64,000 nucleotides of DNA, taken from contig NZ_CP109104.1 in assembly GCF_035917675.1 (NCBI RefSeq), forward strand, positions 5,084,001 to 5,148,000, in the 5' to 3' direction. The notes beneath the pieces were generated by a model that was not told the origin of the DNA, ran no database searches, and saw nothing but the letters and a program-made list of their open reading frames with translations. The stretch's first letter is position 1; the number at the start of each line of letters is the position of its first letter. The DNA comes from Streptomyces sp. NBC_01775 (GTDB lineage: Bacteria; Actinomycetota; Actinomycetes; Streptomycetales; Streptomycetaceae). Made by a program: the position numbers and the translations under genes. Below, in pieces: positions 8,502 through 36,807 of the stretch.

Positions 8502-9371
8502 GTGGTCACCGGAATCACCATCCCCCGCGAACTCCCCGCCGCCGCCCAGGCATACGCCGCCGCCGGCATCAAGGTCTTCCGCGTCCGACGCGGCAAGGCC
8601 CCCTACGCCAACTGCCCCCGCTGCGACCAGCAATCCAGCATCTACATCGACCACCGGCCCGAAGACTGCCGGTGCGGGGTGCCCACCTGTCACGGCTTCT
8701 GGGCCGCCACCACGGACCCCGACCTCGTGCGCCGCTGGTGGACGGATGAGCCGGACGCCAACATCGGCGCGCCCTGCGCCCTCAACGGCTGGGCCGTCCT
8801 CGACATCGACCCCCGCCACAACGGGGATCTCACCTTGCGCGGGCTCGAACAGTGCGTCGGTGTCCTGCCCGGCAGCGTCATGCAGATCACCGGCGGCGAC
8901 GGACTCCACATCCTCTACGCCTCCCCCCGGACCACCCTGCCCGGACAGTGCGGGCCCGGCATCGACATCAAGCACAACGGCTACATCCTGCTCGCCCCCT
9001 CCCTGCACTCCTCCGGTCACCGCTACCACTGGTCCGGCGACGGCCGATTCCACCCGCCGACCACCCCTTGGCCCGCCGCACTGGCACCCCGCCCCCGCCC
9101 CGTACCGGCGCCCGTCACCGAGCTGCGCGGCGCGGGCGCCACCCGCTTCATGCCCGCCCTGGTGAAGGTCGTCCTGGAGGCGCAAGAGGGCGAGCGCAAC
9201 GCCCGCCTGTACTGGGCCGCATGCCGCGCCCACGAGCACGTGCGCGCCGGACAGATCGACGAGGGCACCGCCATGAACTGCCTGCTGGACGCCGCCGAGC
9301 AGATCGGTCTGCGGCTCGTAGAGGCCCGCCAGACCCTGGCCTCTGCGCGTAACGCACGGGCGGCAGCATGA
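8502..9371 (+). CDS. Primase-polymerase (bifunctional DNA primase/polymerase N-terminal domain)
   Basis: This 289-residue prim-pol of the archaeo-eukaryotic primase superfamily is predicted to prime or initiate replication of the element. The catalytic acidic pair is DID at 101-103 (AVLDIDPRHNG). The downstream His motif is GGDGLHILY at about 131-139, and GIDIKHNGYILLAPS near 160 gives the third conserved segment. A Cys-rich insertion (Cys 38, 41, 56, 58, 63) before the DxD could bind zinc. There is no helicase domain in the same chain; the next gene, overlapping by 4 bp, supplies the ATPase. Confidence 0.88.
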   Translation: MVTGITIPRELPAAAQAYAAAGIKVFRVRRGKAPYANCPRCDQQSSIYIDHRPEDCRCGVPTCHGFWAATTDPDLVRRWWTDEPDANIGAPCALNGWAVLDIDPRHNGDLTLRGLEQCVGVLPGSVMQITGGDGLHILYASPRTTLPGQCGPGIDIKHNGYILLAPSLHSSGHRYHWSGDGRFHPPTTPWPAALAPRPRPVPAPVTELRGAGATRFMPALVKVVLEAQEGERNARLYWAACRAHEHVRAGQIDEGTAMNCLLDAAEQIGLRLVEARQTLASARNARAAA

Positions 9372-10579
9372 CCACCGTCGCGGAGATCGCACAGCAGATC
9401 GTCACCAAGAACGGCGTGACAGATGCGGACACGCCGAACCCGGAAGAGTCACCCGCCCGTCGACTCGTCCTCGTTCCCGCTTCGAAGATCCGCATCAGGC
9501 CCGTCCGCTGGCTGTGGGACACCACCCCGCCCGACGCGCCACCAACGTCACACGGGCGTATCCCGCTGAACTCACTGTCCCTCGCAGCGGGTGGCCCCGG
9601 CCTGGGGAAGTCGCAGTTCGGCATCTGGCTGTCCGCAAAAATCACCACCGGGCAACTGCCGGGCCAGCTCTACGGCAAGCCGCACAGCGTGATCTACGCG
9701 GCGTCCGAGGACTCGTGGTCGTACACCATCGCCCCGCGCCTGCTGGCTGCGGGCGCGGACATGGAACGAGTCTTCCGCGTCGATGTGAAGGACGACGAGA
9801 AGATGCACGCCCGGCTGTCCCTGCCCGTCGACATCTCCCTGCTGGGCAAGGCCGCCGAGATGTACAGCGTGGCCCTCGTCGTCGCCGACCCGCTCCTGTC
9901 GCTGCTGGACAGCGGCATCAACGACTACCGGGCCACCGAGGTCCGCTCGGCACTGGAGCCCCTCGTAGCCGCAGCCGACCGGCACGGCTTCACCGTGCTC
10001 GGACTCGCCCACTTCACCAAAGCAGGGACCGCCGACCCCCTCAGCCGGGTCTCCGGATCCGGCGCCTTCGGCCAGCTCATCCGCGCACTGATCGCCTTCG
10101 CGAAGCGCGAGAACGACGACGGAGACGAGGAGTTCGTCATGTCCCTGGAGAAGAACAACCTCGGCAGGGTCGGACTGCCCGGCCACCTGTACGCCATCCA
10201 GCCCGTGACCGTGGAGACGGAGGAAGGGCCCGCCCACATCAGCCGCTTCGCTCTCGGCCCCGAGACATCGGCGTCGGTCCGTGACGTCATGCGAGACGAG
10301 GGCACCGTGAGCGCGGTGGACAGGGCCGAGCGCACCGAAGCCGCCGACTGGCTGGAGGACTACCTGACGTCCGCCGACACGGCTGGAGAAGCAGAGCCAA
10401 GGGACGTGCAGAACGCGGCCAACAAGGCGGGCATCACCCCGAACGCGCTGCGCGACGCGAAGAAGAAGCTCGGCGTGAAGAGCTACAAGCCCAAGGGCGT
10501 CACGAACGCCGCCTGGGTGTGGCGTCTGCCCGGCTACGCGCCTGATGTCCCGGTTGGTGACACCCCCGAAGTGGCCTAG
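9368..10579 (+). CDS. RecA/DnaB-like P-loop ATPase (RepA-type replicative helicase)
   Basis: This 403-residue ATPase of the AAA_25/RepA group has Walker A GGPGLGKS at 75-82 and a Walker B-type strand VALVVADPLLSLL near 174-186. A GLAHFTKA motif near 215 matches the sensor strand of hexameric helicases, and the DPLSRVSGSGAF segment is typical of plasmid RepA-like proteins. The C-terminal 90 residues look like a winged-helix DNA-binding tail. The ATG lies inside the prim-pol stop, so the two are made together as a replication module. The iteron-like array follows directly. Confidence 0.85.
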   Translation: MTTVAEIAQQIVTKNGVTDADTPNPEESPARRLVLVPASKIRIRPVRWLWDTTPPDAPPTSHGRIPLNSLSLAAGGPGLGKSQFGIWLSAKITTGQLPGQLYGKPHSVIYAASEDSWSYTIAPRLLAAGADMERVFRVDVKDDEKMHARLSLPVDISLLGKAAEMYSVALVVADPLLSLLDSGINDYRATEVRSALEPLVAAADRHGFTVLGLAHFTKAGTADPLSRVSGSGAFGQLIRALIAFAKRENDDGDEEFVMSLEKNNLGRVGLPGHLYAIQPVTVETEEGPAHISRFALGPETSASVRDVMRDEGTVSAVDRAERTEAADWLEDYLTSADTAGEAEPRDVQNAANKAGITPNALRDAKKKLGVKSYKPKGVTNAAWVWRLPGYAPDVPVGDTPEVA

Positions 10580-10638
10580 CCCCCGTACACACTCCCCATC
10601 TTCCCCATCTTCCCTCTGACCTGCTCTTTTGCCACCCT

Positions 10639-10822: not shown

Positions 10823-11266
10823 ATGCCTAACACCCCGTCGATCATCGCCCGCCCCACCGCCACGGGCTGGGAAGGCCGCTACGTCCACAACAACGGCCAC
10901 CCCGAGACCCGCCTCCCCCTGCTCCACGCCCTCCACGACGGGCCGTTCGCCACCAGCCACGAGCGCATGACCCGCTTCCTGATCGACGACCACCCCGCCG
11001 GCTGGTCCCAGCTCGGCCACGACCCCACCACCGACACCGGCTGGATCAACCCCTGCCCGCCCATCGGCGACAACGGGTTCCGCTGCTACTGCCACGGCCA
11101 GCGCCGCGAAGAACCGTGTCTGATCACGGACATCGACGCAGAGCCCGACCTGTACGACTTCGTGTACGTCCTCCACCCGCACGGCATCCAGCTCTACGAG
11201 TCCAGCAGCACCACCTGGTGGACCGGCCCCGTCCGCGCCTGGAACATCCGGGAGCGTGCCGCGTGA
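10823..11266 (+). CDS. Hypothetical element protein
   Basis: The protein has 147 residues from ATG 10823, preceded by GAGGAG. It is Trp/His/Pro-rich with a CYCHGQRREEPC cluster near 92-103 that may bind metal. No family is recognised. It is the first gene after the candidate origin and is coupled by GTGA overlap to the next. Confidence 0.6.
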   Translation: MPNTPSIIARPTATGWEGRYVHNNGHPETRLPLLHALHDGPFATSHERMTRFLIDDHPAGWSQLGHDPTTDTGWINPCPPIGDNGFRCYCHGQRREEPCLITDIDAEPDLYDFVYVLHPHGIQLYESSSTTWWTGPVRAWNIRERAA

Positions 11267-11448
11267 ACGCCTACGAGGTACTGCTCCTCGCCGACGGCGC
11301 CGCCTTCGGGGCCCTCCTCGCGTTCTTCGGGCAGAGCAGCGTCACGATGCGCGCGGCGCAGCACGCGGCGGAAGCCAGCGCCCGCAAGCTGGCCCGGCTC
11401 GAAGCCACCCGCGACTGGCGGGCCGCACTGCCCGGGGGGCAGCCGTGA
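11263..11448 (+). CDS. Small single-pass membrane protein
   Basis: The protein has 61 residues from a GTG overlapping the upstream stop. One hydrophobic segment (about 4-23) is followed by an Ala/Arg-rich helix. The layout is typical of tiny accessory membrane proteins in plasmid transfer regions. The role is unknown. Confidence 0.55.
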   Translation: MNAYEVLLLADGAAFGALLAFFGQSSVTMRAAQHAAEASARKLARLEATRDWRAALPGGQP

Positions 11449-12086
11449 CCGAGTGCGGACTGTGCGAGCGCGAGGTGCCCGACGGCTACCTGTGCGAGAG
11501 CTGTGAGCGTGCCCTGCTCGACCAGTTGGTGGCGCTGCCGGGCCTGTACGACGCCCTCGGCGGGATGCTCGCGCCCGGAGGCCGGGCACCCGGCCTCACC
11601 CCGCCCGCCGGGCGCCCCGGCTCGTCCATGCCCGTCCGGGAGGACGCGCTGGACATACGCGGCCCTGGCGGCGCCGTCGCCCTGCTGGAGTCCTGGCGCA
11701 GCGCGCTGCACGACGACGCCGGATGGTCGCCCGTGCATCCGTGGGGCGACTACCGGGCCCGGCTCGCCCGCGCCTGCCGGGCCCTGCGCCTCAACATGCC
11801 GTGGATCGTGGCCAACTGGCCCGCGGCCGGGGCCATGGCCGAGGAGATCCGGGACCTGGTCCACGGCATCGAGTCCGTACTTGAGCCCCCGGACCGGGCC
11901 GAGCGCGGCACCCGGCTGGGCAACTGTCCCGCGGTGGATGACTCGGGGGTGCTGTGCGGCGCGGTGCTGCGCTGGTACCCGGGGAAGATGCTCGCGTGCG
12001 GCTGGTGCGGTACGCGGTATCCGGTGGCGACGTGGGCAGGGCTGCGGGAATGGATCGACCACGACGAGGCGGCCGAGGCATCGTGA
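11445..12086 (+). CDS. Hypothetical protein with N- and C-terminal zinc knuckles
   Basis: The protein has 213 residues from GTG 11445, overlapping the previous stop. The N-terminus shows CGLC and CESC pairs (about residues 4-21) and the C-terminus shows CPAV, C and CGWC (about 163-193). A helical middle separates the two putative zinc ribbons. This arrangement suggests a nucleic-acid or protein-binding adaptor; the exact role is unknown. Confidence 0.65.
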   Translation: MTECGLCEREVPDGYLCESCERALLDQLVALPGLYDALGGMLAPGGRAPGLTPPAGRPGSSMPVREDALDIRGPGGAVALLESWRSALHDDAGWSPVHPWGDYRARLARACRALRLNMPWIVANWPAAGAMAEEIRDLVHGIESVLEPPDRAERGTRLGNCPAVDDSGVLCGAVLRWYPGKMLACGWCGTRYPVATWAGLREWIDHDEAAEAS

Positions 12087-12459: not shown

Positions 12460-12708
12460 ATGACTGATCATGTCGCGGGCTCTCAGCAGCCCGCAAGTTC
12501 CCCGACCGAGGCGCCCCGCTGGGCCCCGCCCCTCGACGTCGCCCTGACCGGCGCCCGCGAAACCCTCGCCGACCTCGCCCGCCTCTGGCCGAACATCGGC
12601 ACCGCGTCCGCACCCCTCCTCGCCGAGCACATCGGCGCCCTCGACGTATCGCTGCGCATGCTCGCCGACGCCGTCACCGTCGAGGTGTACGGGCGGGATG
12701 CCTCGTGA
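12460..12708 (+). CDS. Hypothetical protein upstream of Spd-like genes
   Basis: The protein has 82 residues, with a clear AGGAG site before ATG 12460. A Pro/Ala-rich N-terminus leads to helices without a recognisable motif. It is coupled by overlap to the DUF2637-like gene. Confidence 0.6.
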   Translation: MTDHVAGSQQPASSPTEAPRWAPPLDVALTGARETLADLARLWPNIGTASAPLLAEHIGALDVSLRMLADAVTVEVYGRDAS

Positions 12709-13733
12709 TGGCCCGCCGTATCCGTGCCGATCGGGCGGCCTGGCGTTTCGCCCTCGCCGTCGTCTCGGGCGCTGCGCTGGCGGTCACCGGCTGGTCCCTG
12801 TACGCCGTCGCCCGCCACTACGACAGCCCTCACCCCGTCGCCGGGCTCGCCGTCGCCGTGTTCGACGGCGCCGCCTACGCCTGTCTCCATCTCGCGTCGC
12901 AGGCATCTGCGGCCGGCCGTTCCGCGTTCGGCGCCCGCCTCGCCGCGCTGGGTATCGCCGCCCTGTCGGTCTACCTCAACCGCTTCCACGCCGAGCTGAT
13001 CGACGGCGGCCGACCCGCCACCGTCTTCTTCTCCACGCCTACGCTCGCGCTCCTGGTCGTGTCCGAGCTGGCCTGGGCCGGACCTCGGGCGAAGGCCCGC
13101 GCCGAGCTGGGCCGCACGCCCTACGCGCTGCCGGTGTTCGGCGGCTGGGGATGGCTGCTCGCCCCACGACGGGCCTGGGACATGGTCCGCACCCGGGCCG
13201 CCGACCACATCGAGCGCGCCGAGCCCGCACCCCGTAAGGACCGCGACGTGTCCGCTACGTCCGCGCTGCGCGACCACTTCGCGACCATGGACCCGGCCGA
13301 GGCCATCCGTATCGGGCACGGGTCACAGCCCGAGCTGGCCCCCGGTGAGTTGGCCGCGCTGCTGGGCACCTACGGCGTGCACGTGGACGCCGTGCAGGTC
13401 GCTCTCGTCCTCGGTGGGACCCCGCCGCGCATCACCGTCGAGCGGGAGCCGGACACTGTCCGGACAGGCCCGGACAGCGACGCGGAAACGGACGCGCGTA
13501 TCGCCCTGGCCAGGGCGGACATGCTGTCCGGACAACGGCCGCAGACCATGACCGAGGCCGTGCGCCACCTCGTCGAGCGGGGCATCACCGAGCGCGACAT
13601 CGTCGTGCCCGTCACCTGCTCCGTCCTCGGTCCGGACACGAATCCGGACAGTGTCCGCCGCACCCTGGAGCGCGAGAAGGAACGCGCCGACGCCGAGCCG
13701 GAGCCCCGCCGGGGAGAGGGCGGGTACATCTGA
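12705..13733 (+). CDS. DUF2637/SpdA-like membrane protein (plasmid spread family)
   Basis: The protein has 342 residues. The N-terminal half has about four hydrophobic segments (approximately 14-34, 44-62, 73-89 and 102-122). The C-terminal half is cytosolic, with an HTH-like region near 210-240 and a charged tail. DUF2637-type proteins lie next to tra genes in Streptomyces conjugative plasmids and AICEs, where neighbouring spd genes affect intramycelial plasmid spread. The GTG start overlaps the upstream stop, and ATG 12708 is an alternative. Confidence 0.7.
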   Translation: MMARRIRADRAAWRFALAVVSGAALAVTGWSLYAVARHYDSPHPVAGLAVAVFDGAAYACLHLASQASAAGRSAFGARLAALGIAALSVYLNRFHAELIDGGRPATVFFSTPTLALLVVSELAWAGPRAKARAELGRTPYALPVFGGWGWLLAPRRAWDMVRTRAADHIERAEPAPRKDRDVSATSALRDHFATMDPAEAIRIGHGSQPELAPGELAALLGTYGVHVDAVQVALVLGGTPPRITVEREPDTVRTGPDSDAETDARIALARADMLSGQRPQTMTEAVRHLVERGITERDIVVPVTCSVLGPDTNPDSVRRTLEREKERADAEPEPRRGEGGYI

Positions 13734-14053
13734 TGGCCACCCCCGCCCGCCGCCCCGAGCAGCAGACCGTGCAGCAGATCGGTATCGACGCCGACGGCCG
13801 CCCGATCTACTCCTGGCCGCGCCAGCCCGACCCTGTACCGCAGCGCCCGCTCGCCGCCTACCCGGCCGGGACGCTCGCCGCGGTCGGCTGCGCGGCCCTG
13901 GCCTCTCTCGTTGTGGTCGCGTTCGTCCTCGTCGCGGTCCTGATCGGCCTGTCCATCGCGCTGGTGGTCCTCGCCATCGCCGTCGTGGCCCTGACGATCT
14001 GCGTCCTGGTGCTCCGCTCGATGTGGCGCGAGCACCAGCAGACCAAGGGCTGA
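13733..14053 (+). CDS. SpdB-like small membrane protein
   Basis: The protein has 106 residues. A soluble N-terminus (RPIYSWP motif near 23-29) precedes two closely spaced hydrophobic segments (about 44-68 and 70-94) and a short basic tail. The ATG overlaps the stop of the DUF2637-like gene. Layout and position match SpdB-type intramycelial spread proteins of Streptomyces plasmids. Confidence 0.65.
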   Translation: MATPARRPEQQTVQQIGIDADGRPIYSWPRQPDPVPQRPLAAYPAGTLAAVGCAALASLVVVAFVLVAVLIGLSIALVVLAIAVVALTICVLVLRSMWREHQQTKG

Positions 14054-14925: not shown

Positions 14926-17061
14926 ATGACCCACACCAGGGTGAACGGGACACCCCGCCCCGCGGCGCCCAGCCTCCCGGTATCACCGCCCGAGTCCGTC
15001 AGCGATAGGGCCGCGCCAGTCCACACCACCAGCGGTGGCCAGCGGGTTCGTCTGCGCCGTACCCGCGCCGCAGGACGGGCGTTGCGTACCCTCGCCACCG
15101 ACGAGCGCACCGGTACCGTGCTGCGCGCCGCTGTCCGCCACTCCATGTACGTCGCCGGCGGAACCCGCATCATCACCCGCCGCACCTGGGACGGGCGCAC
15201 CGTCTCCCGGTACGAGCGGATGATGCGCGCCGCCGAAGCCGCGGGGAACACCGAGCTGGCACAGGAGTGGGAAGAGCGCGCGCACCGCTTCCGCGACGGG
15301 CGTCACAAGCGGCGCATGGAACTGCTGACCGCCGCGCCCGGCATCGCCAAGTCCGCAACCGTCGCCGTCCTGGCCACCCAGGGTGGCCTGGTGCTGCTCG
15401 GCGGCGCCCTCGCTGTCGCCAACGAGGACATCCGCGACGTGCTCGCCCCGACCATGGCGGTGATCGAACTCGTCCGCTGGCTCGTCCTGATCGGCAGCGT
15501 CGTATGGGGGCCGCTGCTCATGGCCCTGCCGTGGATGGTCCTGGCCGCCCTGTGGGGTGTCGGCCGCAAGCAGCAGGCCGCCCCGAACTGGGCCCTGCCC
15601 GCCCGTCAGCAGAGCGGCGGCGCGCCCATCACCCCGTCCATCGTCGTTACCGCCCTGCGCGACCTGGGCGTGCCCGCCCTGCGCAAGGCCATCATCGCGA
15701 TGGGCGACGCCGGCGCCGCCATGCTCTCCCCGATCTCGATCGCCGGGTGCGGCGTCGAGGTCGACGTCTCCCTGCCCTCCGGCTCGTCCACCGAAGAGGT
15801 CATGAACCGGCGCCGGAAGCTCGCCGAGAACCTCGGGCGGCACGAGCACGAGGTGCACGTCAGTGTCGCCCCCGCGGCCCGCACTGTGCGCCTGTGGATC
15901 GCAGATTCCGGCGCCCTCGACGAGCCCGTGCCCGCCTCCCCGCTGGTCACCGACACCGAGCTGACCGCGAACTACAAGACCGGTCGCGCCCCCTGGGGCC
16001 CGAACCTGCGCGGTGACCTGGCGGGCCTGAGCCTGTACCAGAAGCACGTGCTCATCACGGGCCTGTCCAACCAGGGCAAGACCGCCAGCTTGCGGGCGCT
16101 GGCGCTGTGGCTCGCGCTCGACCCCACGGTGGAGTTCCGTATCGGGGACCTGAAGGGCATCGGGGACTGGGGCATGTTCGCCGGTCTGGCCACCGTGCTC
16201 ATCGAGGGCCCCACCGACGGTCACGTGGCCGACGTGACCGAGATGGTCGAGGACGCGTTCGACGAGATGCAGCGGCGCATCCAGGCCCCGCCGGGCACCA
16301 CCTTCCATCCCATCGTCGTCATCGTGGATGAAGCCCAGGTTGCCTATGGGTGCGGCGCCAAGGACGATCGCAAGCGGCCCTACGGCGGCGCCACGGGTAC
16401 CTCCCGCTACTTCCAGGCGGTCAAGGGCATCCACGACCAGGGGCGGGCCGTCAACGTCACCATCTGGGAAGGCACCCAGGACCCCACCAACGAGAACCTG
16501 CCCAAGCGCTCCCGCGAGGGCAACCACATCCGCGCCTCGCTCGTGCTGGGCACCAAGTCACAGGCAGAGATGGCGCTCGGGGACAACGCCGTCGAGGCCG
16601 GTGCCGCACCGCACAAGCTGCGCCAGGGCCTGGACAAGGGACAGGTCGTCGTCGCCGGCGCCGGGCTCCAGCTCGCCCCAGGGCAGGTCGCGATGAACGT
16701 GCGCACCCACTTCATCGACGACGACGACGCCAAGGCCGTCGCCGACCGGGCCAAGGCCCGCCGCAGCGACGTCCACACCAAAGCCAGGGTCGAAGCCGCC
16801 GAACGGCCCGACCACCTGGCCGACATCGCTCTCGTCCTCGGCGACGCGGACCGCATGCGCACCGAGGAGGTGCGCCAGCGCCTCGCCGAGCACAACCCCG
16901 GCGAGTACCGCGAGTGGACCGCCTCCGACCTGCGCGCCGTCCTGGACGCAGTCCAAGCACCGCCGTACAAGTCCGACGGACGCATGGTCGTCTCCCGGCA
17001 CAGCGTCCAAGAAGCCCTCGATGCACGCGAAAGCGAACAAGCGAACCCGGAAAACGAGTAA
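14926..17061 (+). CDS. tra: FtsK/SpoIIIE-type conjugal DNA translocase (TraB/TraSA-like)
   Basis: This 711-residue membrane ATPase is predicted to pump double-stranded element DNA into recipient hyphae, as TraB does for Streptomyces plasmids. Two membrane segments (about 143-165 and 182-212) precede a motor domain with Walker A GLSNQGKTA at 379-387 and Walker B VVIVDEAQ at 464-471. The last 90 residues (about 620-700) resemble the winged-helix gamma domain that reads octamer DNA repeats. It starts with ATG after AGGAG. It follows spd-like genes and is followed at once by the AGGGAGGC octamer array. Cell-division FtsK is less likely because that has four TMs and a long linker. Confidence 0.9.
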   Translation: MTHTRVNGTPRPAAPSLPVSPPESVSDRAAPVHTTSGGQRVRLRRTRAAGRALRTLATDERTGTVLRAAVRHSMYVAGGTRIITRRTWDGRTVSRYERMMRAAEAAGNTELAQEWEERAHRFRDGRHKRRMELLTAAPGIAKSATVAVLATQGGLVLLGGALAVANEDIRDVLAPTMAVIELVRWLVLIGSVVWGPLLMALPWMVLAALWGVGRKQQAAPNWALPARQQSGGAPITPSIVVTALRDLGVPALRKAIIAMGDAGAAMLSPISIAGCGVEVDVSLPSGSSTEEVMNRRRKLAENLGRHEHEVHVSVAPAARTVRLWIADSGALDEPVPASPLVTDTELTANYKTGRAPWGPNLRGDLAGLSLYQKHVLITGLSNQGKTASLRALALWLALDPTVEFRIGDLKGIGDWGMFAGLATVLIEGPTDGHVADVTEMVEDAFDEMQRRIQAPPGTTFHPIVVIVDEAQVAYGCGAKDDRKRPYGGATGTSRYFQAVKGIHDQGRAVNVTIWEGTQDPTNENLPKRSREGNHIRASLVLGTKSQAEMALGDNAVEAGAAPHKLRQGLDKGQVVVAGAGLQLAPGQVAMNVRTHFIDDDDAKAVADRAKARRSDVHTKARVEAAERPDHLADIALVLGDADRMRTEEVRQRLAEHNPGEYREWTASDLRAVLDAVQAPPYKSDGRMVVSRHSVQEALDARESEQANPENE

Positions 17062-17162
17062 GGGAGGCGCCAGGGAGGCAGGGAGTTCTCCCTCACAGCC
17101 TCCCTTCACCCTCCCTCGGGGTGTGATCAGCGCGTATGTCGATCACAGGGAGGCAGGGAGGC
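17061..17162. repeat. AGGGAGGC octamer array with palindrome (candidate clt transfer locus)
   Basis: Perfect AGGGAGGC octamers lie at 17061, 17072, 17147 and 17155, with an inverted copy at 17098-17105 and a partial one at 17080. Between them TGTGATC (17122-17128) and GATCACA (17141-17147) form an inverted repeat. The array starts at the last base of the tra coding sequence. In Streptomyces plasmids TraB binds 8-bp repeats (clt/TRS) next to its gene, and the sequence also resembles the G-rich octamers read by FtsK. The role is inferred. Confidence 0.6.
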
Positions 17163-17264
17163 GGGCCCCGACCGGTGCGCTTCTCGTTTCCAGCAGTGCC
17201 CGCACACCCATACGACGCTTCCCTCCCTACCGATCAACCAATCACTGAGAGGACACTCACCCCC

Positions 17265-17861: not shown

Positions 17862-17898
17862 GGCCGCCGCCCTGCTTGGTAGGGCCAGGGCGGCGGCC
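17862..17898. other. Strong GC hairpin in the gene-free region before HNH/terminase
   Basis: A 13-bp perfect stem (GGCCGCCGCCCTG, 17862-17874, with 17886-17898) lies in a 268-bp gap without genes. A second inverted pair (about 17911-17920 with 17954-17963) follows. The position just upstream of HNH and terminase is where cos-type phages place their packaging site, so this may be structural DNA and not a simple terminator. Confidence 0.45.
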
Positions 17899-20664: not shown

Positions 20665-20675
20665 GGGGTGACCTG

Positions 20676-21815: not shown

Positions 21816-21817
21816 AC

Positions 21818-27566: not shown

Positions 27567-27604
27567 CCGGGCCGCCGCCCGCCTTGCTGAAGGGGGCGGT
27601 TCGG

Positions 27605-30196
27605 ATGGCCGAACGGCTGACGTTCGTTCTGACCGGCCGGGATGACCTCTCCCGCACCCTGAACGGCGCCGGAGACTCGGCCGCACGGCTGCACCGCCGC
27701 ATCGACAGCTCGATGCGGGCCAGCACGGCGACGGTCACCGGGTTCACGCGCAACGCCGACGGGAGCCTGCGCACCCTGTCGGCCCGGCTGGACGGCGCCG
27801 GGGACAGCGCCACCCGTATGGGCGGCGGACTGCCGGGCCTCTCAGGGCGGCTGGGGGATGTGGCCTCGTCCGGTACGGACGCGGCGGCGTCGATGGGCAG
27901 CAAGGGCGGCGGCCTGGGCGGCGCGATGGGCGGCGTCGCCGCGGTCGCCGGGCTGTCCCTGCTGCCCGCGTTGGGCGCGCTGGTGCCGATGCTGGCCGGC
28001 GGCGGCCTGGCTGCGGGCACCCTCAAGCTCGGCTTGTCGGGGATCCCGGAGGCGTTGGAGGCGTCGGGCAAGGGCAGCAAGGAGTACCACGCGGCGCTGA
28101 AGAAGTTGCCCGCCCCGGCGCGGGACTTCGCCAAGTCCCTGGTGGGGCTGAAGGGGGAGTTCAAGGGCGTCGGCGGTGAGATCCAGAAGGCGATGCTGCC
28201 CGGCTTCACCAAGGCCGTGAAGGGCGCCGGGCCGCTGGTGAAAATCCTCGGCAAGAACATGGTCGACCTGGGCAAGACGTTCGGGGACATCGGCGCCAAG
28301 GCGGGCAAGGTCTTCAAGTCCTCCGGATTCCAGAAGGACTTGCAGGCGAACCTCGACCTGGGCAAGCGCTTCGTCGGCGACATGGCGTCCGGCATCGGGC
28401 GGCTGGGCCGCTCCCTGCTGTCCTTCGGTGCCGCCTCCGGGCCGACGCTGCGGTCCCTGTCCTCGGGGCTGCGCGACATGCTGGGCAAAGGGCTGCCGGG
28501 CATGTTCGACGGCTTGAAGCGCGGTATCGGCGGGACGTCGAAATTCTTGGATGGCCTGTTCGGCGCCGTGAACAAGGTCCTGCCCGCCTTCGGCCGCCTG
28601 GCCGGGGAGACCGCCAAGGCGTTCGGCCCGCTGCTGGGTGAGCTGATGACCTCCGCCGGTGACCGGATCGCCGCCGTCATGGACATCATCGGCGGCGCGC
28701 TGCGCGGCTTGGGCCCGGTCTTCAAGGACCTGACCTACGGCATGAAGATCGTGAACACCGTCTCGCGGCTGATCGGCGGCGCGGTGAAGGACACCGCCGT
28801 CGCGATCATGGAAGCGTTCGCCCCGGCGGGCAAGTCGATCAGTAAGACGGCCGGGCCGCTGCGGCGCCTGTACGGCGTGGTGCAGCGCAACAAGATCGGC
28901 TTCATGGAGTTCGGGCGGGTGGCGGGCAACGCCTTCATCAGCTTCGTCTCGGTCCTCGCGCAGTCCGTCGCGCCTGTGATCGGGATCTTCAAGTTCATCG
29001 CCGAGACCGTGCTGGGCCTGTTCGGCGGCATCCTGCACGGAGCGGCCAAGGCGTTCGGCTGGGTGCCGGGGCTCGGCAAGAAGCTGAGAGCTGCGGACAA
29101 GTCGTTCGCGGGTTTCAAGGACTCCGTTGTCGGCGGCCTGGACAAGGCCCAGCGCAAGGCCAAGGAGTTCTCCGACTCGGTCGTGCCACGGCTGAAGGCC
29201 GGGCAGCTCAAGCTGTCCATCAAGTCCTGGGAGTCGCAGCTCAAAGAGGCCAAGCGGCAGCTGAAGGACCCGAACCTGACCAAGGACAAGCGCGTCGCCC
29301 TGAAGGCGAAGATCGACGACCTTGAAAAGAAGATCAAGTCAGCGCGGACGCAGCTGAACAAGACACCCAGCGAACACGTCGCCTATCTCCGGGCGAAGAT
29401 CGACAACTGGCAGAGCCAGCTGACCAAGGCCAAGGCCAAGCTCAAGACGGTCCCCGCCTCCAAACGCTCGGCCCTGAAGGCAGAGATCAAAGACATCGAG
29501 AACAAGGTGAAGTCCGCCAAGAAGACCATCGGCGGTCTCACCGGCGGCCCGCCCCGCGCACTCAGGGCCAAGAACATCGTCGGCTCGGCCGTGCGCAGCG
29601 CAAAGTCCGCGATCAACGGGGTCAAGGGCGGGGCGCCCCGCCCCCTGCGGGCGAGCAACCTCGTCAACGGCGCGGTGCGCGCGGCCCGGAACGCGATCGG
29701 GTCCGTGCACGGCCGGACCGTGTACATCAACGCCGTCATGCGCAAGATCGGCTCATGGAGCCCGTTCCGCGACGGCGGCCCGGTCATGGCCCACTTCGCA
29801 GGCGGCGGCCCGGTGCGCGGCTTCCCCGGCGGCGGCCCGGTGCGCGGGCCCGGCTCGGGCACCTCGGACTCGATTCTGGCGAGGGTCTCCAATGGCGAGT
29901 TCGTCATCCGCGCCAAGGCCGTCGCCCGCTACGGCATGGCCCTGTTCCACGCGCTCAACCAAGAGCGCATCGGCCTCGGCAGCCCCCAGGCGGGCGCTGC
30001 GGCTGCGAGCCTCCCGCAGCCCACGCGCCCGGCGGCCGGCCGTCCGGCAGTGGTGGCCACGCAGTCGTCCGTGATGCACGTGCAGGTCGACGTGCAAGGC
30101 GCCTTCGACCCGCTCGCCACTGCCCGCGAGATCCAGAAGCAGCTGCTCATGCTCAAGCGCACGCACGGCCTGAACGTGAACCTGGGGGTGTCGTGA
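27605..30196 (+). CDS. Tail tape-measure protein
   Basis: The protein has 863 residues from ATG 27605, chosen over an in-frame start at 27584 because AAGGGGG sits at proper spacing. Long Ala/Gly/Lys helices dominate, with hydrophobic segments near 115-140 and 450-480. Two related repeats occur: a Lys-rich coiled-coil unit (about 535-640) and an RAxNxVxxAVRxAxxAI unit (about 650-700). The end carries the Gly-Pro repeats and SDSILARVSNGEFVI segment common to actinophage tape measures. Length sets the tail length. Confidence 0.9.
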   Translation: MAERLTFVLTGRDDLSRTLNGAGDSAARLHRRIDSSMRASTATVTGFTRNADGSLRTLSARLDGAGDSATRMGGGLPGLSGRLGDVASSGTDAAASMGSKGGGLGGAMGGVAAVAGLSLLPALGALVPMLAGGGLAAGTLKLGLSGIPEALEASGKGSKEYHAALKKLPAPARDFAKSLVGLKGEFKGVGGEIQKAMLPGFTKAVKGAGPLVKILGKNMVDLGKTFGDIGAKAGKVFKSSGFQKDLQANLDLGKRFVGDMASGIGRLGRSLLSFGAASGPTLRSLSSGLRDMLGKGLPGMFDGLKRGIGGTSKFLDGLFGAVNKVLPAFGRLAGETAKAFGPLLGELMTSAGDRIAAVMDIIGGALRGLGPVFKDLTYGMKIVNTVSRLIGGAVKDTAVAIMEAFAPAGKSISKTAGPLRRLYGVVQRNKIGFMEFGRVAGNAFISFVSVLAQSVAPVIGIFKFIAETVLGLFGGILHGAAKAFGWVPGLGKKLRAADKSFAGFKDSVVGGLDKAQRKAKEFSDSVVPRLKAGQLKLSIKSWESQLKEAKRQLKDPNLTKDKRVALKAKIDDLEKKIKSARTQLNKTPSEHVAYLRAKIDNWQSQLTKAKAKLKTVPASKRSALKAEIKDIENKVKSAKKTIGGLTGGPPRALRAKNIVGSAVRSAKSAINGVKGGAPRPLRASNLVNGAVRAARNAIGSVHGRTVYINAVMRKIGSWSPFRDGGPVMAHFAGGGPVRGFPGGGPVRGPGSGTSDSILARVSNGEFVIRAKAVARYGMALFHALNQERIGLGSPQAGAAAASLPQPTRPAAGRPAVVATQSSVMHVQVDVQGAFDPLATAREIQKQLLMLKRTHGLNVNLGVS

Positions 30197-32082
30197 CGGA
30201 ACTGCTGGTCGAGATGGGGTGGGGCGGGCTGGTACAGGAGCCCGACACCATCACCTGGAGCGACATCACCGACTACGTCGACGTGGTGCAGGGGGTGAGC
30301 ATCACCCGCGGCGCCTCGGACGAGCTGGCCGAGACCCAGCCCGGTACCGCCACCCTCATCCTCGACAACCTCGACGGCCGGTTCACCCCGGGCAACCCGG
30401 CCAGTCCGTACTGGCCGCACGTGCGGCGCAACGCCCCCATCCGCATCTCCGTCGTGACCGGCGCGGTGACGTATCCACGCTTCTACGGTCTGGTCAACGA
30501 GTTCCCCGCCGCCTGGTCCGGACTGATGTCCACCGTCAGCATCTCGTGCACGGACCTGTTCAAGCGCCTCAACCGGCTGCCCGCACTGCGCAGCGTGCTC
30601 GCCGAGGAGATCCTCATCCAGGCCGCCGAGGCGGACAGCGCCACCGTGAAGCTGGCCGCCTACTACCCGCTGGGCGAGGAGTCCGGCGCGACGTCGGCCG
30701 GCGACCTGTCCGGCATCGGGGGCGGGCCGCTGGTCATGACTCAGGCTCTGTCGGGCGGCAGCGCCGACTTCGGCGGGGAGGGGCCGCCCGCCCTCGGCGC
30801 CGGAGCGGTGAGCTTCGAGCCCGAGACCGACCGGGAGGGGAAGTACCTGCTCGGCGATCTGGGTGCGCAGTTCGAGCTCGACGATGTATCCAGCTGGCAG
30901 ACGATCGAGGGCTGGTTCAAGACCGCCACCCCCGAGCGGGCCATCCTCGGCCTGCACTCCGCGAACCTCGACCACCAACTCGTGTTCGCCATCGACGCGG
31001 ACGGCGCGCTGTGCATCGAGCACACCGACATCGGTGGGACTCGCACGGTCACCGTCAGCATCAGCGCCCGCGTCGACGACGACGCCTGGCATCACTTCCT
31101 GTTCGACGCCGAGGCGGGCGGCCTGTGGCTCGACGGCGTCGCCCTGTTCGTGAACCCCACCCTGATCACCCTGATGTCCGCGCTGCGCATCCTGCACGTA
31201 GGGGCGTTCCGCGGCATCCGCCTGTTCTCCGGGCAGATCGCCCACGTGTGCCTGTGGCACTCCCTGCTGGGGACGCCGTCCACGCTGGCAGCGGCGCACT
31301 GGGAGGCCGGCACCACCGCGTTCGCCGGTGAGCCCGCGGACGAGCGCATCGTGCGCCTGGCCCGCTACGTCGGACTGCACCAGGTGGACATCGTCGGGGA
31401 CGTCCACGACTCCATCGCCGGACAGGGAGCGGCCGGCACCACGGTGACCGCCCGCATGCGGGAAGTCGAAACCACCGAGGCGGCCAAGCTGTTCGCCGAG
31501 CGGGACAGCTACGGCATCGCCTACCACTCGCGCGATGTGCGCTACAACCCAGACCCGGCCGACGACGCCTTCACCATCGAATACGCCGACCTGGAAACCC
31601 CCGACTTCCTGCTGGCCGACGACGATCAAAAACTGGTCAACACCGTCACGGCCTCCCGGCCGGGCGGCGCGACCCAGCGCGTGACCGATCCCGTCTCGGT
31701 CGAGCGGGACGGCCCATACGAACAGCAGCTCGACGTGCTGAAGATGGACGACGCCGGCGCGCTGGCCGCCGCGCAGTGGATGGTCTCCCGCTACGCCGAC
31801 CCCGCGCCCGAGCTACGAGAGGTGCCGGTAGAGGCGTACACCCTGCCGATCTACGCCGATGTCCTCGGCGCGGACATCGGCTCCGTCCTCACCGTGACGG
31901 ACCTGCCCGCCCAGGCGCCCGAGCCGTCCATGCGGGTCATCGTCGAGGGCTACAGCGAGGTCATCAAACAGGGCTCCCACCAGGTTCGTTTCCTCACCTC
32001 GGCGGCCATCACCGACTCGGTCTGGATCCTGGATGACCCCACCTACTCCGTGCTGGATGTCAGCACCCGCCTGGCCTACTGA
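30193..32082 (+). CDS. Minor tail / distal tail protein with LamG-like domain
   Basis: The protein has 629 residues from a GTG overlapping the tape-measure stop. The N-terminal part (SITRGASDELAETQPGTATL near 37-56 and LDNLDGRFTPGNPASPY) is the signature of actinophage distal-tail proteins. Residues about 165-385 look like a concanavalin-A/LamG jelly roll (DDAWHHFLFDAEAGGLWLDG), a possible carbohydrate contact. The C-terminal part resembles tail hub domains. Confidence 0.8.
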   Translation: MTELLVEMGWGGLVQEPDTITWSDITDYVDVVQGVSITRGASDELAETQPGTATLILDNLDGRFTPGNPASPYWPHVRRNAPIRISVVTGAVTYPRFYGLVNEFPAAWSGLMSTVSISCTDLFKRLNRLPALRSVLAEEILIQAAEADSATVKLAAYYPLGEESGATSAGDLSGIGGGPLVMTQALSGGSADFGGEGPPALGAGAVSFEPETDREGKYLLGDLGAQFELDDVSSWQTIEGWFKTATPERAILGLHSANLDHQLVFAIDADGALCIEHTDIGGTRTVTVSISARVDDDAWHHFLFDAEAGGLWLDGVALFVNPTLITLMSALRILHVGAFRGIRLFSGQIAHVCLWHSLLGTPSTLAAAHWEAGTTAFAGEPADERIVRLARYVGLHQVDIVGDVHDSIAGQGAAGTTVTARMREVETTEAAKLFAERDSYGIAYHSRDVRYNPDPADDAFTIEYADLETPDFLLADDDQKLVNTVTASRPGGATQRVTDPVSVERDGPYEQQLDVLKMDDAGALAAAQWMVSRYADPAPELREVPVEAYTLPIYADVLGADIGSVLTVTDLPAQAPEPSMRVIVEGYSEVIKQGSHQVRFLTSAAITDSVWILDDPTYSVLDVSTRLAY

Positions 32083-33568: not shown

Positions 33569-33641
33569 CCGTGCCCGTCAGCAGCTGCTCGCCCCGCGCC
33601 CGATGGCCGGGGCGTTTCTCATGCCCAGGAAGGGGCCCACC

Positions 33642-34427
33642 ATGGCCAAGGGGCCACAGAAGTACCCCGACGCCTCCACCGCCTACTGGTACGGCCGCAC
33701 GTACCCGGGCTCCGCGATGGAGTCGAACGTCGGCGTCATCCACACCACCGAGGGCATGACCGTGCCCGGCTACTCCGGAGGTCGGGACGCCCCGAACTTC
33801 ACCGCGCTGCCCGACATCAAGAACAAGCGGCTGCGCTGGTACCAGCACTTCGACGTCGACCGCTCCTCCCGCGCCCTCGTCAACCTGGGCGGCGGCGTCG
33901 AGACCAACACCCTCAACGCTCTCCAGGTCGAGCTGGTCGGAACCTGCGACGAGCGGCACGCCAAGACGTGGGGCGGCAAGAAGGCCGGCACCGACTACCT
34001 GTTCTGGCCGGACGCCCCGGACTGGGCACTCGCCGAGATGGGCAAGTTCGTGCGCTGGTGCCACGACCACCACGGCATCAAGATGCAGTCGACCGTGACG
34101 TGGAAGCCCTACAAAAAGGGCCAGGCCGGAGGCAGCTACGGCGCCAACGGCGTCCGCCTGAGCGGCAAGCAGTGGCAGGGGTATTACGGCTGGCTCGGCC
34201 ACCAGCACGTACCCGAGAACTCCCACGGCGACCCCGGCGACATCGACATGGCCCGCGTCCTGGCCCACGCCAGGGGCACCACCGCGAGCACGTACACGGT
34301 GAAGGCCGGCGACACCCTCTCATCCATCGCCCGCCAGCACGACACCACCTGGCAGCAGCTCGCCCAGCTCAACGGCCTCAAGGCCCCGTACACCATCCAC
34401 CCGGGCGACAAGCTCAAGACGAAGTGA
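33642..34427 (+). CDS. Endolysin: N-acetylmuramoyl-L-alanine amidase with LysM
   Basis: The protein has 261 residues. Start ATG 33642 is chosen because GGAAGGGG precedes it; in-frame ATGs at 33603 and 33621 are upstream. The N-terminal amidase_2-like domain shows VGVIHTTEG (zinc His near 33), LNALQVELVGTC near 91-102 and a later HQHVPENSHGDPGD segment supplying His and Asp ligands. A LysM domain closes the protein (YTVKAGDTLSSIARQHDTTW to the end). It cuts peptidoglycan stem peptides once the holin opens the membrane. Confidence 0.9.
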   Translation: MAKGPQKYPDASTAYWYGRTYPGSAMESNVGVIHTTEGMTVPGYSGGRDAPNFTALPDIKNKRLRWYQHFDVDRSSRALVNLGGGVETNTLNALQVELVGTCDERHAKTWGGKKAGTDYLFWPDAPDWALAEMGKFVRWCHDHHGIKMQSTVTWKPYKKGQAGGSYGANGVRLSGKQWQGYYGWLGHQHVPENSHGDPGDIDMARVLAHARGTTASTYTVKAGDTLSSIARQHDTTWQQLAQLNGLKAPYTIHPGDKLKTK

Positions 34428-34690: not shown

Positions 34691-34960
34691 GTGGACGCCA
34701 CCGCACTCGGCGCGCTGCTCGTCGGCGTCGGCGGGCTGGCAAGCGCCGTGGTGGCGTTCATGGGAAAGCGCGGAGAGAACGCAATCGCGGGCTACAGCTC
34801 GTTGACCGGAGACCTACGCCAAGAGCGGCAAGCGCTCAAAGAGGAGCGCGACGCCCTCCGCCTCCAACTCGCCGAGCTGCACGCCCAACGCGCCGCCGAC
34901 CAAGCGGAACTGGCCCATCTGCGCGGAATCATCACCACACTCGGAGGGGATTCGTCGTGA
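34691..34960 (+). CDS. Membrane protein with coiled coil in the lysis cassette
   Basis: The protein has 89 residues. One N-terminal membrane segment (about 5-24) is followed by an uninterrupted charged coiled coil (about 42-80, QERQALKEERDALRLQLAEL). It could be a second holin, a spanin-like factor or an antiholin. The stop overlaps the next gene by four bases. Confidence 0.65.
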   Translation: MDATALGALLVGVGGLASAVVAFMGKRGENAIAGYSSLTGDLRQERQALKEERDALRLQLAELHAQRAADQAELAHLRGIITTLGGDSS

Positions 34961-35649
34961 CCCGCACCCAGCGCATGTTCGTCCGCCGCTGGCGGTCACT
35001 GCTGCTGGCGTGCATCCTCGTCGCCCTCTCCGGGGCGACGGTCGTTATCTGGGCCCGTATCTCCCACGAGGCCGACCGAGCCGAGCAGCTGGCCGCCGAG
35101 GCGGACCGGCGGGGCAACGCCGTCACCACCCTCGCCGGAGACGTCCGCGTGCTGCGCGCACAGATCAAAGCCAAGGGCGGCACGCCGAAAGCACCCGACC
35201 CCGGCCGCGCCGTCCCGGGCCTGCCCAAGCGGGCCGAGGTACCCGTACCGATCCCCGGCCCAAAGGGACCGAGCGGCCAGCCGGGCAAGCCGGGCCGCTC
35301 AGGCAGCGAGGGCAACAGCGGACGCGCGGGAGACGACGGCCGCCCCGGAAGCCCAGGCACGGACGGGAAGGCCGGCACCCAAGGCGAGCACGGCGCCCAG
35401 GGCGAGGCCGGTAAGGACGGTGCAGACGGAAAAAACGGCGCAGACGGCGCCCAAGGACCGCCCGGCGAGCGCGGCCCCCAAGGCGAACGCGGCCCCCAGG
35501 GACCAGCCTGCCCCGACGGCTACAGCCTCCAGACCCCGACATGGGACCCGGATGCCCTGGTGTGCAGGAAAGACAACGCCCCGGCCCCCGAACCCGAGCC
35601 GAACACCCAGCCGCAGAACGCGGCCCTAGCCGAACGCAAACGCTGGTGA
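34957..35649 (+). CDS. Membrane-anchored collagen-like protein
   Basis: The protein has 230 residues from a GTG overlapping the upstream stop. A basic N-terminus and one membrane segment (about 14-34) precede a helical spacer. Then come some 29 Gly-X-Y triplets (about 100-188), including GPKGPSG and GPPGERGPQGERGPQG. A CPDGYSLQTPTWDPDALVC disulfide-like knob follows. The N-in anchor plus collagen stalk suggests a cell-surface or envelope-spanning fibre instead of a virion part. Its position after the holin is unusual. Confidence 0.8.
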   Translation: MTRTQRMFVRRWRSLLLACILVALSGATVVIWARISHEADRAEQLAAEADRRGNAVTTLAGDVRVLRAQIKAKGGTPKAPDPGRAVPGLPKRAEVPVPIPGPKGPSGQPGKPGRSGSEGNSGRAGDDGRPGSPGTDGKAGTQGEHGAQGEAGKDGADGKNGADGAQGPPGERGPQGERGPQGPACPDGYSLQTPTWDPDALVCRKDNAPAPEPEPNTQPQNAALAERKRW

Positions 35650-35736
35650 CCGAGCGCCCGCCCACACCCCCTGACGAACTGGACCTGTCGCCCTGGCGTC
35701 AGTAGCCACTGCCCCAACGAGCCGGGAGCGTGAGCC

Positions 35737-36807
35737 ATGCCCATAGATCTGCCGACGTTCACCCTGTCCGGTGAGTACCCCCGGCTATCCCCGTCCGGTA
35801 CGGCACGGACGGGGCGGCTGGTGTTCACACCAGTGCCCGAAGTGCTGGCCGCAGACGAGGGGATACTGCTGGGCAGCGAGGTTGCGACGCTCGACGACGA
35901 TGGCGCGTTTTCCATCCAACTGGCCGCGGCTGAAGCTGCGGGCCCGTTCCTGTGGCAGGTGGACCAGCAGATCGTAGGCGTGCGCCAGCGGCCATTCCTC
36001 ATGGAACCCGGGGTGGAAGGCAGCGCGCTGTCTCTGTCCTCAGTCGTCGTGGCCCCGCCACCGCCCGCGGGGTATGTGGTGGTGCCGGGGCCGCGCGGTC
36101 CGGCGGGCGAAGCGGGCCAGGACGGGGACCCCGGCGAGACGGGGCCGACCGGTGAGCAGGGTCCCCCCGGCGAGCGCGGAGAGACCGGGCTGCCGGGCGC
36201 CACTGGTCCGAAGGGCGACCCGGGCGCGACGGGCTCGCAGGGCGCGACGGGTGCCACCGGTGCGACGGGCACCCCCGGCGCCGCAGGACGGGACGCCGCA
36301 TGGCCGCCACAGCGGCAGAACTACGCGGCCTGGAGCATCAACCCCGACGCCTGCTCCACCGCGCTCACGCTCCCCACCAACCGCCTCTTCCTCGCCGGGC
36401 TCCAGCTCGACAGCACGCTGAACGCGACCGCGCTCGACTGGTTCGTCTCCGTCGCCGCCACCGGCGCCACAGGCGGCCAGTGCTGGACCGGCTTGTACTC
36501 GCAGGCGGGGGTGCTGCTGGCCTCTGCCGCAGCCGCAACGCCCATGGTGACCGTAGGAGTCCAGAGCATGCCGCTTTCGCTCTCCCTGCCGAGCGGCATG
36601 TACTGGGCTGCGCTCCTATTCAACGGCACTACCGGCCCGCAGATCCCCCGCGGCGCGCAGGCTACCGGAGGCCCGGCCCTCACCAACATCGGACTGGGCG
36701 CCATCGCATACAGGGCGGCGTTTCAGGACGGGCACACCGTGCTTCCCAGCCCGCTGGTCCCTGCCAACCATCAGCCGTATGTGCCGCTGTTCGTCGCCAT
36801 CAAGTGA
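35737..36807 (+). CDS. Collagen-repeat tail fibre / receptor-binding candidate
   Basis: The protein has 356 residues from ATG 35737. An N-terminal beta domain of about 110 residues is joined by a collagen-like stalk of about 24 triplets (about 118-187, rich in GxT and GxP). A C-terminal beta-rich head of about 165 residues follows and ends [12 protein letters not shown]. This head-stalk-head plan is that of trimeric phage fibres. It is the last gene of the late operon and precedes a strong terminator; its place after lysis suggests a modular, exchangeable fibre. Confidence 0.78.

What the first reader, a model, noticed from the sequence alone, without database searches (positions are those of the whole stretch)
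8502..36807. One element with both AICE/plasmid-type transfer genes and a full siphovirus cassette
Seen: between two perfect 46-bp att repeats, a prim-pol/RecA-like ATPase pair, DUF2637 and SpdB-like membrane proteins and a 711-residue FtsK/TraB motor (Walker A 379-387, Walker B 464-471) are followed, on the same strand, by HNH, terminase, portal, protease, capsid, tail and lysis genes with no visible frameshift. Known: TraB motors move double-stranded plasmid DNA between Streptomyces hyphae; siphovirus cassettes package DNA. Inference: the element may spread by conjugation within mycelium and by virions between colonies, a dual-route mobile element. The alternative is that the Tra-like motor serves only partition or replication of a phage-plasmid.
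Basis: partly seen in the sequence, partly recalled or inferred. Interest (0 to 1): 0.88.

Follow-up and report, generated by a model that had tools for sequence, protein, structure and literature searches.

The report
Prophage carrying a conjugation motor
A complete-looking bacterial virus sleeping in a Streptomyces-like chromosome also carries the DNA-pumping gene, and what looks like the matching DNA landing site, that Streptomyces mobile elements use to pass DNA from cell to cell, so it may spread both as virus particles and by direct contact.

Summary
A 37.6-kb element at tRNA-Thr (att 3612-3657 and 41209-41254) carries integrase, prim-pol/ATPase, a Spd-like protein, a 711-aa FtsK/TraB-type Tra and an HK97-type siphovirus cassette with lysis genes.
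Tra is AICE kin: no match in 50,697 phage records, 58% identical to Tra of an AICE-like Streptomyces circle, with relatives in 50 of 199 same-genus genomes.
The pairing recurs: of 154 Tra loci, 30 have phage structural genes downstream, 93 an integrase (AICE-like), 31 neither; two head cassettes without profile similarity occur.
New here: a repeat array directly 3' of tra (17061-17228, core AGGGAGG), shared by AICEs and 11 of 25 phage loci, placed like experimental clt loci. Its core co-varies with Tra residue 684, in a predicted DNA-binding domain. So this prophage seems to keep a Tra-clt pair.
Plasmid-phages that conjugate (pZL12, pFP4) are already known, so this is a new, integrative, recurrent variant. 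Transfer by either route is inferred, not shown.

The parts
3580..3655 (+). tRNA-Thr (TGT), integration site
   Evidence: ARAGORN
3612..3657 (+). att repeat, left copy (46 bp)
   Evidence: colinearity with relatives runs up to 3654-3658 in 4 of 6 compared
41209..41254 (+). att repeat, right copy (identical)
3772..5331 (-). tyrosine integrase, 519 aa
   Evidence: PF00589 E 2.3e-10, phrog_1 E 1e-42
6644..6967 (+). HTH_17/AlpA-like small protein, candidate excisionase (inference)
   Evidence: HTH_17 E 4.8e-4, below cut-off
8502..9371 (+). prim-pol domain primase/polymerase, 289 aa
   Evidence: PF09250 E 2.7e-28
9368..10579 (+). RecA-like/AAA_25 replicative ATPase, 403 aa
   Evidence: PF13481 E 2.1e-20; 85 phage records by tblastn, all under 60% identity; found only in the window's own two small loci among 170
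11256..12086 (+). cysteine-rich conserved protein (g11256); true start probably near 11445 (inference)
   Evidence: profile hits in 40 of 170 loci; no Pfam family; sequence
12705..13733 (+). SpdB/DUF2637-like membrane protein, 342 aa
   Evidence: DUF2637 E 0.0073 (below cut-off), phrog_29416 E 2e-38; two hydrophobic segments; 48.8% to a protein of a 34.5-kb circular plasmid
13733..14053 (+). small protein with one strong hydrophobic segment
14926..17061 (+). Tra: FtsK/TraB-type dsDNA translocase, 711 aa; two hydrophobic segments, motor, C-terminal domain read as a winged helix (630-706)
17061..17228 (.). clt-like repeat array: 7 copies of AGGGAGG on both strands, directly 3' of tra
17876..18262 (+). 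HNH endonuclease
   Evidence: PF01844 E 6.2e-7
18269..18706 (+). small-terminase-like P-loop protein
   Evidence: phrog_4581 E 4.8e-35
19180..20664 (+). large terminase
   Evidence: phrog_9 E 3.7e-79
20541..21815 (+). portal (start uncertain)
   Evidence: PF04860 E 1e-62
21569..22564 (+). prohead protease S78 (start probably further downstream)
   Evidence: PF04586 E 1.8e-32
22616..23875 (+). major capsid protein
   Evidence: phrog_10 E 8e-82
24164..24709 (+). head-tail adaptor
   Evidence: phrog_442 E 4.4e-23
25435..26421 (+). tail protein (phrog: minor tail; possibly the tail tube)
   Evidence: phrog_290 E 1.9e-37; a similarly placed 328-residue gene in NZ_CP108470 is annotated phage tail tube protein (not aligned)
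27584..30196 (+). tape measure, 870 aa
   Evidence: phrog_3547 E 1.1e-15 and others
29755..32082 (+). phrog_5313 protein, probably tail (by position); start uncertain
   Evidence: E 1.2e-94, function unknown
33603..34427 (+). endolysin
   Evidence: phrog_1493 E 6.6e-19
34691..34960 (+). holin-like protein
   Evidence: phrog_2658 E 7.8e-5; one hydrophobic segment
34957..36807 (+). two tail-fibre/collagen-like proteins (34957-35649, 35737-36807)
   Evidence: phrog_1806 E 3.6e-39; phrog_6320 E 4.2e-19
36951..38168 (+). HTH_3 regulator
   Evidence: phrog_5823 E 8.3e-102, PF01381 E 9.1e-12

Best explanation
It is an intact-looking temperate siphovirus prophage that has kept an AICE-type conjugation module: Tra, Spd-like membrane proteins and a cognate clt site directly 3' of tra. 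Most likely mechanism: integrase excises the element to a circle, and prim-pol/ATPase replicates it. Tra, a membrane-anchored FtsK-type hexamer, binds the AGGGAGG repeats through its C-terminal domain and pumps the double-stranded circle through hyphal contacts and septa, with the Spd-like proteins helping spread inside the mycelium. The late cassette separately packages DNA into virions and lyses the compartment. Shown by computation: gene content, kinship of Tra, the shared repeat array, and its co-variation with the Tra C-terminal domain. Inferred: hexamer, DNA binding, excision, transfer, virion production, and how the two programmes are timed.
For: One att-bounded unit with both gene sets. 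Tra is AICE kin and FtsK-fold, with motor residues invariant in 47 aligned Tra, prophage ones among them. Ten close prophage tra pairs give dN/dS 0.17-0.43. Repeat array at tra's 3' end: at least 3 AGGGAGG in 250 bp in 64 of 88 AICE-like, 9 of 25 phage and 15 of 28 undecided loci, against 2 of 4397, 0 of 1231 and 0 of 1228 other bins of the same loci. Without fixing the motif, at least 4 copies of some 7-mer: 15 of 25 phage sites against 64 of 1289 bins. On a tree built without the C-terminus the core (AGGGAGG or GGGGAGG) changes 13 times; residue 684 is the best of 603 columns, and in 12 independent pairs it follows in 10.5 on average, opposes in 0, does not differ in 1.5 (median p 0.001; with H alone 9, 0, 3, p 0.004). 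684 lies between the two wing strands of a predicted winged helix. In pWTY27 the clt is 16 bp of traA plus 159 bp 3', its 7-bp repeats footprinted by TraA; pSVH1 TraB reads 8-bp motifs through its C-terminal winged helix (PMC3583192 passages). Nineteen portal-bearing loci without Tra reach at most 4 of the broader core in any 250 bp; the window element reaches 7 and eight tra-bearing loci 3 to 8. A 34.5-kb circular plasmid of the same broad family shows that relatives exist extrachromosomally.
Against: No transfer, excision, binding or particle data. AGGGAGG was picked from these same sites before it was counted. The co-variation rows are mostly AICE-like; splitting 684 as H or N gives 9.9 for, 1.2 against (p 0.012), and p-values are not corrected for picking the best column. 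For the phage-rich AGTGAGG type only 2 supported independent pairs exist (p 0.5), and 7 of its 11 rows, and L018, were typed by eye. 14 of 25 phage sites share no more 10-mers with AICE sites than other parts of their loci do. A looser repeat score did not separate phage sites from background (102 against 94, sd 28). Two of the eight tra-bearing loci (L008, L100) do not exceed the tra-less ones. Tra was found in only 4 of 20 fetched same-genus portal loci (one of the other 16 is only 6.8 kb), so such phages can do without it. The SpdB-like profile hits few phage loci (L100, L160, L162 and weakly L165, L236), and the ATPase profile only the window's own loci, so the module is not constant. NZ_CP108372 keeps a SpdB-like gene without Tra or array. 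Window tra against more distant phage tra has pN/pS up to 0.77.
Confidence: 0.62

Rival explanations
1. Tra-clt serves only maintenance: an FtsK/KOPS-like system that partitions or resolves the excised circle or pumps it into spores and hyphal compartments of the same mycelium, with no transfer between strains.
For: FtsK and Tra motors share the fold. No ParA/ParB was recognised among the window proteins scanned, while a tra-less relative, NZ_CP108470, carries ParA, so the functions could substitute.
Against: Tra groups with AICE Tra and the window's array is the AICE array; in pWTY27 such a site is needed for efficient transfer (PMC3583192 passages). A Spd-like gene sits beside it.
Confidence: 0.2
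2. The array is a replication origin (iterons) or regulator site, not a Tra site.
For: In AICE-like loci it lies between tra and the prim-pol/rep genes: where both were placed on one strand, prim-pol is downstream of tra in 87 of 88.
Against: In phage loci prim-pol lies upstream (4 of 4 placed; also the window, where it starts 8.6 kb before the array), yet the array stays at tra's 3' end. Array type tracks the Tra C-terminus. pWTY27 has its replication iteron apart from its clt.
Confidence: 0.1
3. A prophage and an AICE remnant merely lie side by side or fused in this one genome; tra is a passenger under decay.
For: A third att copy suggests that this site takes tandem elements.
Against: tra followed by terminase and/or portal genes on one strand in 30 classified loci, with intact motor residues and dN/dS below 0.43 in ten close pairs.
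Confidence: 0.05

Closest known systems
Streptomyces plasmid-phages pZL12/phiZL12 and pFP4
   Same: One element with a conjugal transfer gene and a tailed-phage cassette; conjugation and infective particles are cited for this kind (PMC4170104 passage), and pZL12 transfer is cited as needing a major tra gene (PMC3583192 passage). The ZL12 record carries an FtsK/SpoIIIE-like gene.
   Different: ZL12 is a 90.4-kb circular record with parAB; its FtsK-like protein is not found by the Tra profile made here. The window element is 37.6 kb, integrated at tRNA-Thr, with AICE-type Tra and array. pFP4 itself was not seen; the original pZL12 paper is not held and the pFP4 paper was not looked up.
AICEs (pSAM2/pWTY27-like; here NZ_CP108827)
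   Same: Integrase, prim-pol, SpdB, Tra 58% identical, clt-like array 3' of tra.
   Different: Typical AICE order here is tra - array - prim-pol - rep - int, with no phage cassette.
pPaSha2 of Pseudonocardia alni and pFP3 of Streptomyces sp. F2
   Same: Replicons of 34-42 kb with FtsK + DUF2637 genes and terminase, portal, protease, capsid.
   Different: Tra distant (pPaSha2 26% identical) or not detected by the profile (pFP3); plasmid records.
NZ_CP108372 and NZ_CP108470 circular plasmids
   Same: Related phage cassettes: integrase 55.7%, capsid 60%, SpdB-like 48.8% (NZ_CP108372); terminase 79% (NZ_CP108470).
   Different: No Tra found in either; no array in NZ_CP108372 (NZ_CP108470 not searched for it).

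Membership tests
AICE | Integrase, Rep/prim-pol and FtsK-type Tra together, flanked by att | tested here: met
   criteria as in PMC3218068 passages; the FtsK Pfam match itself is below cut-off
AICE | clt-like repeats recognised by Tra | tested here: inconclusive
   array present and co-varying; binding not tested
AICE | Conjugal transfer (pocks) | not testable with these tools
   needs mating
Tailed temperate phage (siphovirus) | Terminase, portal, protease, capsid, tail tape measure, lysis genes, repressor-like gene, integrase | tested here: met
Tailed temperate phage (siphovirus) | Infectious virions | not testable with these tools
   no close isolated phage: capsid below 60% in all 406 matching records
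Plasmid-phage (pZL12/pFP4 kind) | Tra locus plus phage cassette in one element | tested here: met
Plasmid-phage (pZL12/pFP4 kind) | Maintained as an extrachromosomal replicon | tested here: inconclusive
   window copy is integrated; a relative without Tra is a circular plasmid record
TraB-type translocase | Membrane segments, FtsK motor, C-terminal winged helix | tested here: met
   membrane segments by a simple hydropathy scan; winged helix read from the order of helices and strands in the model, not compared on its own with solved structures

The most novel reading that the evidence does not exclude
Actinobacteria harbour a widespread class of integrative conjugative phages. Virions carry the genome between colonies; after entry, Tra-clt pumps it through septa and hyphal contacts so that a whole mycelium is colonised from one infected compartment. 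The DNA-binding end of Tra and the adjacent clt form a swappable specificity cassette shared with AICEs, so that elements of one type (AGGGAGG) could mobilise each other across the phage/plasmid divide.
Probability: 0.42. Interest if true: 0.87.

Novelty: new variant of a known kind. Interest (0 to 1): 0.74.

Why it matters
It moves dual-route elements from two plasmid-phages known to me to a recurrent prophage architecture with at least two head cassettes, and gives them a candidate cis site with a readable protein-DNA specificity code. [quoted passage not shown] Array type and residue 684 predict which elements share specificity, so that question becomes testable, between AICEs and phages too.

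Tried and rejected
One single origin of phage Tra was considered and rejected: phage and AICE labels need at least 6 changes on the tree with undecided loci left out; phage against all others 13, of which starred branches force 10 (FastTree; four long rows flagged).

A chance cluster of AGGGAGG was rejected: 14 in 64 kb, close to the 11.4 expected, but 7 lie within 168 bp.

Empty-site test: the left flank is colinear with relatives up to the tRNA end in 4 of 6 compared, but right flanks differ, so the empty site was not shown. The first 44 bases of the att were not found in NZ_CP108372 with up to 9 mismatches.

A motif-free repeat score (7-mers seen twice) was uninformative for phage sites. 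I then wrote a stricter one with three word lengths and two thresholds; for phage sites five of the six settings were significant and one was not (9-mers, at least 4 copies: 1 of 25 against 3 of 1289, p 0.07).

Defence-system reading: no PADLOC hit for 10 proteins. A named phage carrying this Tra: no match in 50,697 records; the divergent Tra of L104 matches only Streptomyces phage Gilgamesh (two records, 26.7% over 44%).

Literature: ten searches, open-access PMC only. In the listings and passages seen I met no description of AICE-type Tra in siphovirus prophages or of this array. Seen as passages only: PMC3218068, PMC12169178, PMC10023795, PMC11302927, PMC4170104, PMC3583192, PMC9513070, PMC4487206, PMC5431353, PMC7157519. 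Zhong 2010, Chen 2012 and Vogelmann 2011 were not read; what is said of them comes from citing passages or recall.
Full report
What is there. The window lies in a 9.34-Mb genome. A tRNA-Thr gene (3580-3655) contains one copy of a perfect 46-bp repeat whose other copy is at 41209-41254, so the element is 3612-41254. An integrase lies at the left end on the minus strand. The plus strand then reads: HTH protein, prim-pol and AAA_25 ATPase, a conserved cysteine-rich protein, SpdB/DUF2637-like protein, Tra, HNH, terminase, portal, protease, capsid, tail, endolysin, holin-like protein, fibres and an HTH regulator. I saw no broken gene among those identified; several start codons are uncertain.

What Tra is. 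The 711-aa protein is only a weak FtsK_SpoIIIE match by Pfam (E 4.9e-4, below cut-off). A profile of 47 aligned Tra matches solved FtsK motors (2iuu, E 1.9e-8), and the AlphaFold2 model (mean pLDDT 79.3) matches FtsK best (E 2.9e-14) and the conjugation coupling protein TcpA closely behind (2.3e-13). A hydropathy scan gives two N-terminal hydrophobic segments; of 10 AICE and phage homologues scanned, 7 have two or more and 3 have one. pWTY27 TraA is reported with two (PMC3583192). Tra has no match in the phage collection at E 1e-5. It is 58% identical to Tra of NZ_CP108827, a 13.5-kb circle with integrase, DUF3631, prim-pol and SpdB, hence AICE-like.

How common the pairing is. Tra relatives: 21 viral-collection loci, 61 genome loci, and 50 of 199 same-genus genomes. 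Of 60 same-genus Tra loci fetched, 48 were classed AICE-like, 10 undecided, one (L236) phage, and one partial was dropped. Over all sources 154 Tra loci were classed: phage if structural genes lie on the same strand within 11 kb downstream (30), AICE-like if an integrase-profile hit lies within 9 kb downstream (93), otherwise undecided (31). Removing identical Tra leaves 25, 88 and 29. These counts lean to viruses because two sources were viral collections. From the other side, portal relatives were found in 22 of 295 same-genus genomes; of 20 such loci fetched, 4 had Tra, and one of the rest is only 6.8 kb. Of 42 viral portal loci, 9 had Tra, many contigs being too short to tell. L004, whose Tra is nearest to the window's (75%), has a head set that the window's profiles do not find: phrog_104 portal, scaffold, phrog_267 capsid. 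So the module goes with more than one phage type. Of 24 Tra-bearing phage loci tabulated, the cysteine-rich gene lies upstream of tra in 17, downstream in 1, and is not seen in 6. In tra-less relatives the stretch before the terminase genes holds other genes.

The repeat array. Immediately after the tra stop codon, many AICE-like and phage loci share an array of 7-9-bp repeats on both strands with a similar layout: a small palindrome such as AGGGAGTTCTCCCT, inverted copies, a central GAYCWGC..AAA element, then a direct pair. AGGGAGG averages 3.91 per 250 bp there in AICE-like loci against 0.036 elsewhere, and 1.92 against 0.026 in phage loci; the motif was noticed in these sites first. By shared 10-mers, 11 of 25 phage loci carry an AICE-like site (window 30, highest elsewhere in its locus 8; L022 only narrowly, 14 against 12); the other 14 do not. 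They show variants in the same place: AGTGAGG, GGTGAGG-like, or CCGGTTTC palindromes with the most divergent Tra. Several of these assignments were made by eye.

Co-variation. Among 106 loci with a clear AGGGAGG (82) or GGGGAGG (24) core, residue 684 is D in 72 of 82 of the first and H in 17 of 24 of the second, N (4) or G (3) in the rest. On a tree without residues from 630 on, the core type changes 13 times. With 12 independent pairs on supported branches, the split of 684 into G/H/N against the rest goes the same way in 10.5, opposite in 0, no difference in 1.5 (median p 0.001). With H alone it is 9, 0 and 3 (p 0.004); with H or N 9.9, 1.2 and 0.8 (p 0.012). It is the best of 603 columns (balanced accuracy 0.976); the next, 675 (0.876), is in the same domain. 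The p-values are not corrected for choosing the best column; 684 was first seen in six hand-picked sister pairs, 6 of 6, which belong to the same data. In the model, 630-706 reads as a winged helix: helix 666-675 in the recognition position, wing strands 681-683 and 686-690 with 684 between them (my reading of the order of elements). Columns separating AGTGAGG from AGGGAGG cluster there too, 16 of the top 20, but with only two supported independent pairs. pSVH1 TraB recognises 8-bp motifs through helix alpha3 of its C-terminal winged helix, and the pWTY27 clt spans the end of traA and the adjacent 159 bp (PMC3583192 passages). I therefore read the array as the Tra binding site, clt, and the prophage as carrying a matched pair.

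Function. The array stays with tra in prophages although prim-pol lies on the other side of tra (its start is 8.6 kb before the array in the window; upstream in 4 of 4 other phage loci where placed), unlike in AICE-like loci (87 of 88 downstream). That argues against an origin. Tra in ten close prophage pairs is under purifying selection (dN/dS 0.17-0.43); the window against more distant phage tra has pN/pS 0.42-0.77. Against constancy of the module: the SpdB-like profile hits few phage loci and the ATPase profile only the window's own. The best-supported function is DNA transfer of the element. Whether between strains, only within the mycelium, or both, sequence cannot say. A 34.5-kb circular plasmid record of the same broad family supports an extrachromosomal stage for relatives; it lacks Tra, so SpdB-like proteins and Tra can part.

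Place among known things. Streptomyces plasmid-phages pZL12 and pFP4 already combine conjugation and virions (passages; originals not read). This element differs in being integrative with AICE-type Tra and array, in a group of prophages with no close isolated phage: capsid and portal below 60% in every matching record. Hence a new variant of a known kind. Most interesting are the recurrence and the shared, co-varying specificity site.

Noticed in passing
window 44716-44761 and 41255-44715: Third att copy (one mismatch) about 3.5 kb beyond attR: a tandem element or remnant between the two; the one protein tested there (42805-43377) had no PADLOC hit.
   Followed up: partly
window 43496-43547 and 45409-45460: Two 52-nt copies, 90% identical, either side of the third att copy.
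   Followed up: no
window 1300-1479: Overlapping G+C-rich 13-nt repeat array upstream of the tRNA gene.
   Followed up: no
L242/L244 (CP052773.1): Pseudonocardia alni pPaSha2, a 41.9-kb circular plasmid record, looks like a phage-plasmid with FtsK, DUF2637, Bet and an HK97 cassette.
   Followed up: partly
L267 (NC_023067.1): Streptomyces plasmid pFP3 carries an HK97 phage cassette plus DUF2637 and FtsK genes; its FtsK is not found by the Tra profile.
   Followed up: partly
L243 (NZ_CP109237.1) 6287-8512 and 3' flank: A distant FtsK (about 24% identical) on a linear plasmid has GGACACC-type repeats and a GACCTGCACAAA element at the same 3' position, so the array layout may be older than this Tra family.
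   Followed up: partly
3' of tra, many loci (e.g. L009, L032, L103): Central GAYCWGC..AAA element inside the arrays: 12 of 25 phage, 38 of 88 AICE-like, 10 of 28 undecided, 18 of 3725 other bins. Role unknown.
   Followed up: partly
L095, L099, L101, L102, L104, L106, L160: A divergent Tra (profile score 181-194) with repeats of another kind 3' of it (CCGGTTTC palindromes; in L095 counted less clearly), in prophages of the same portal family.
   Followed up: partly
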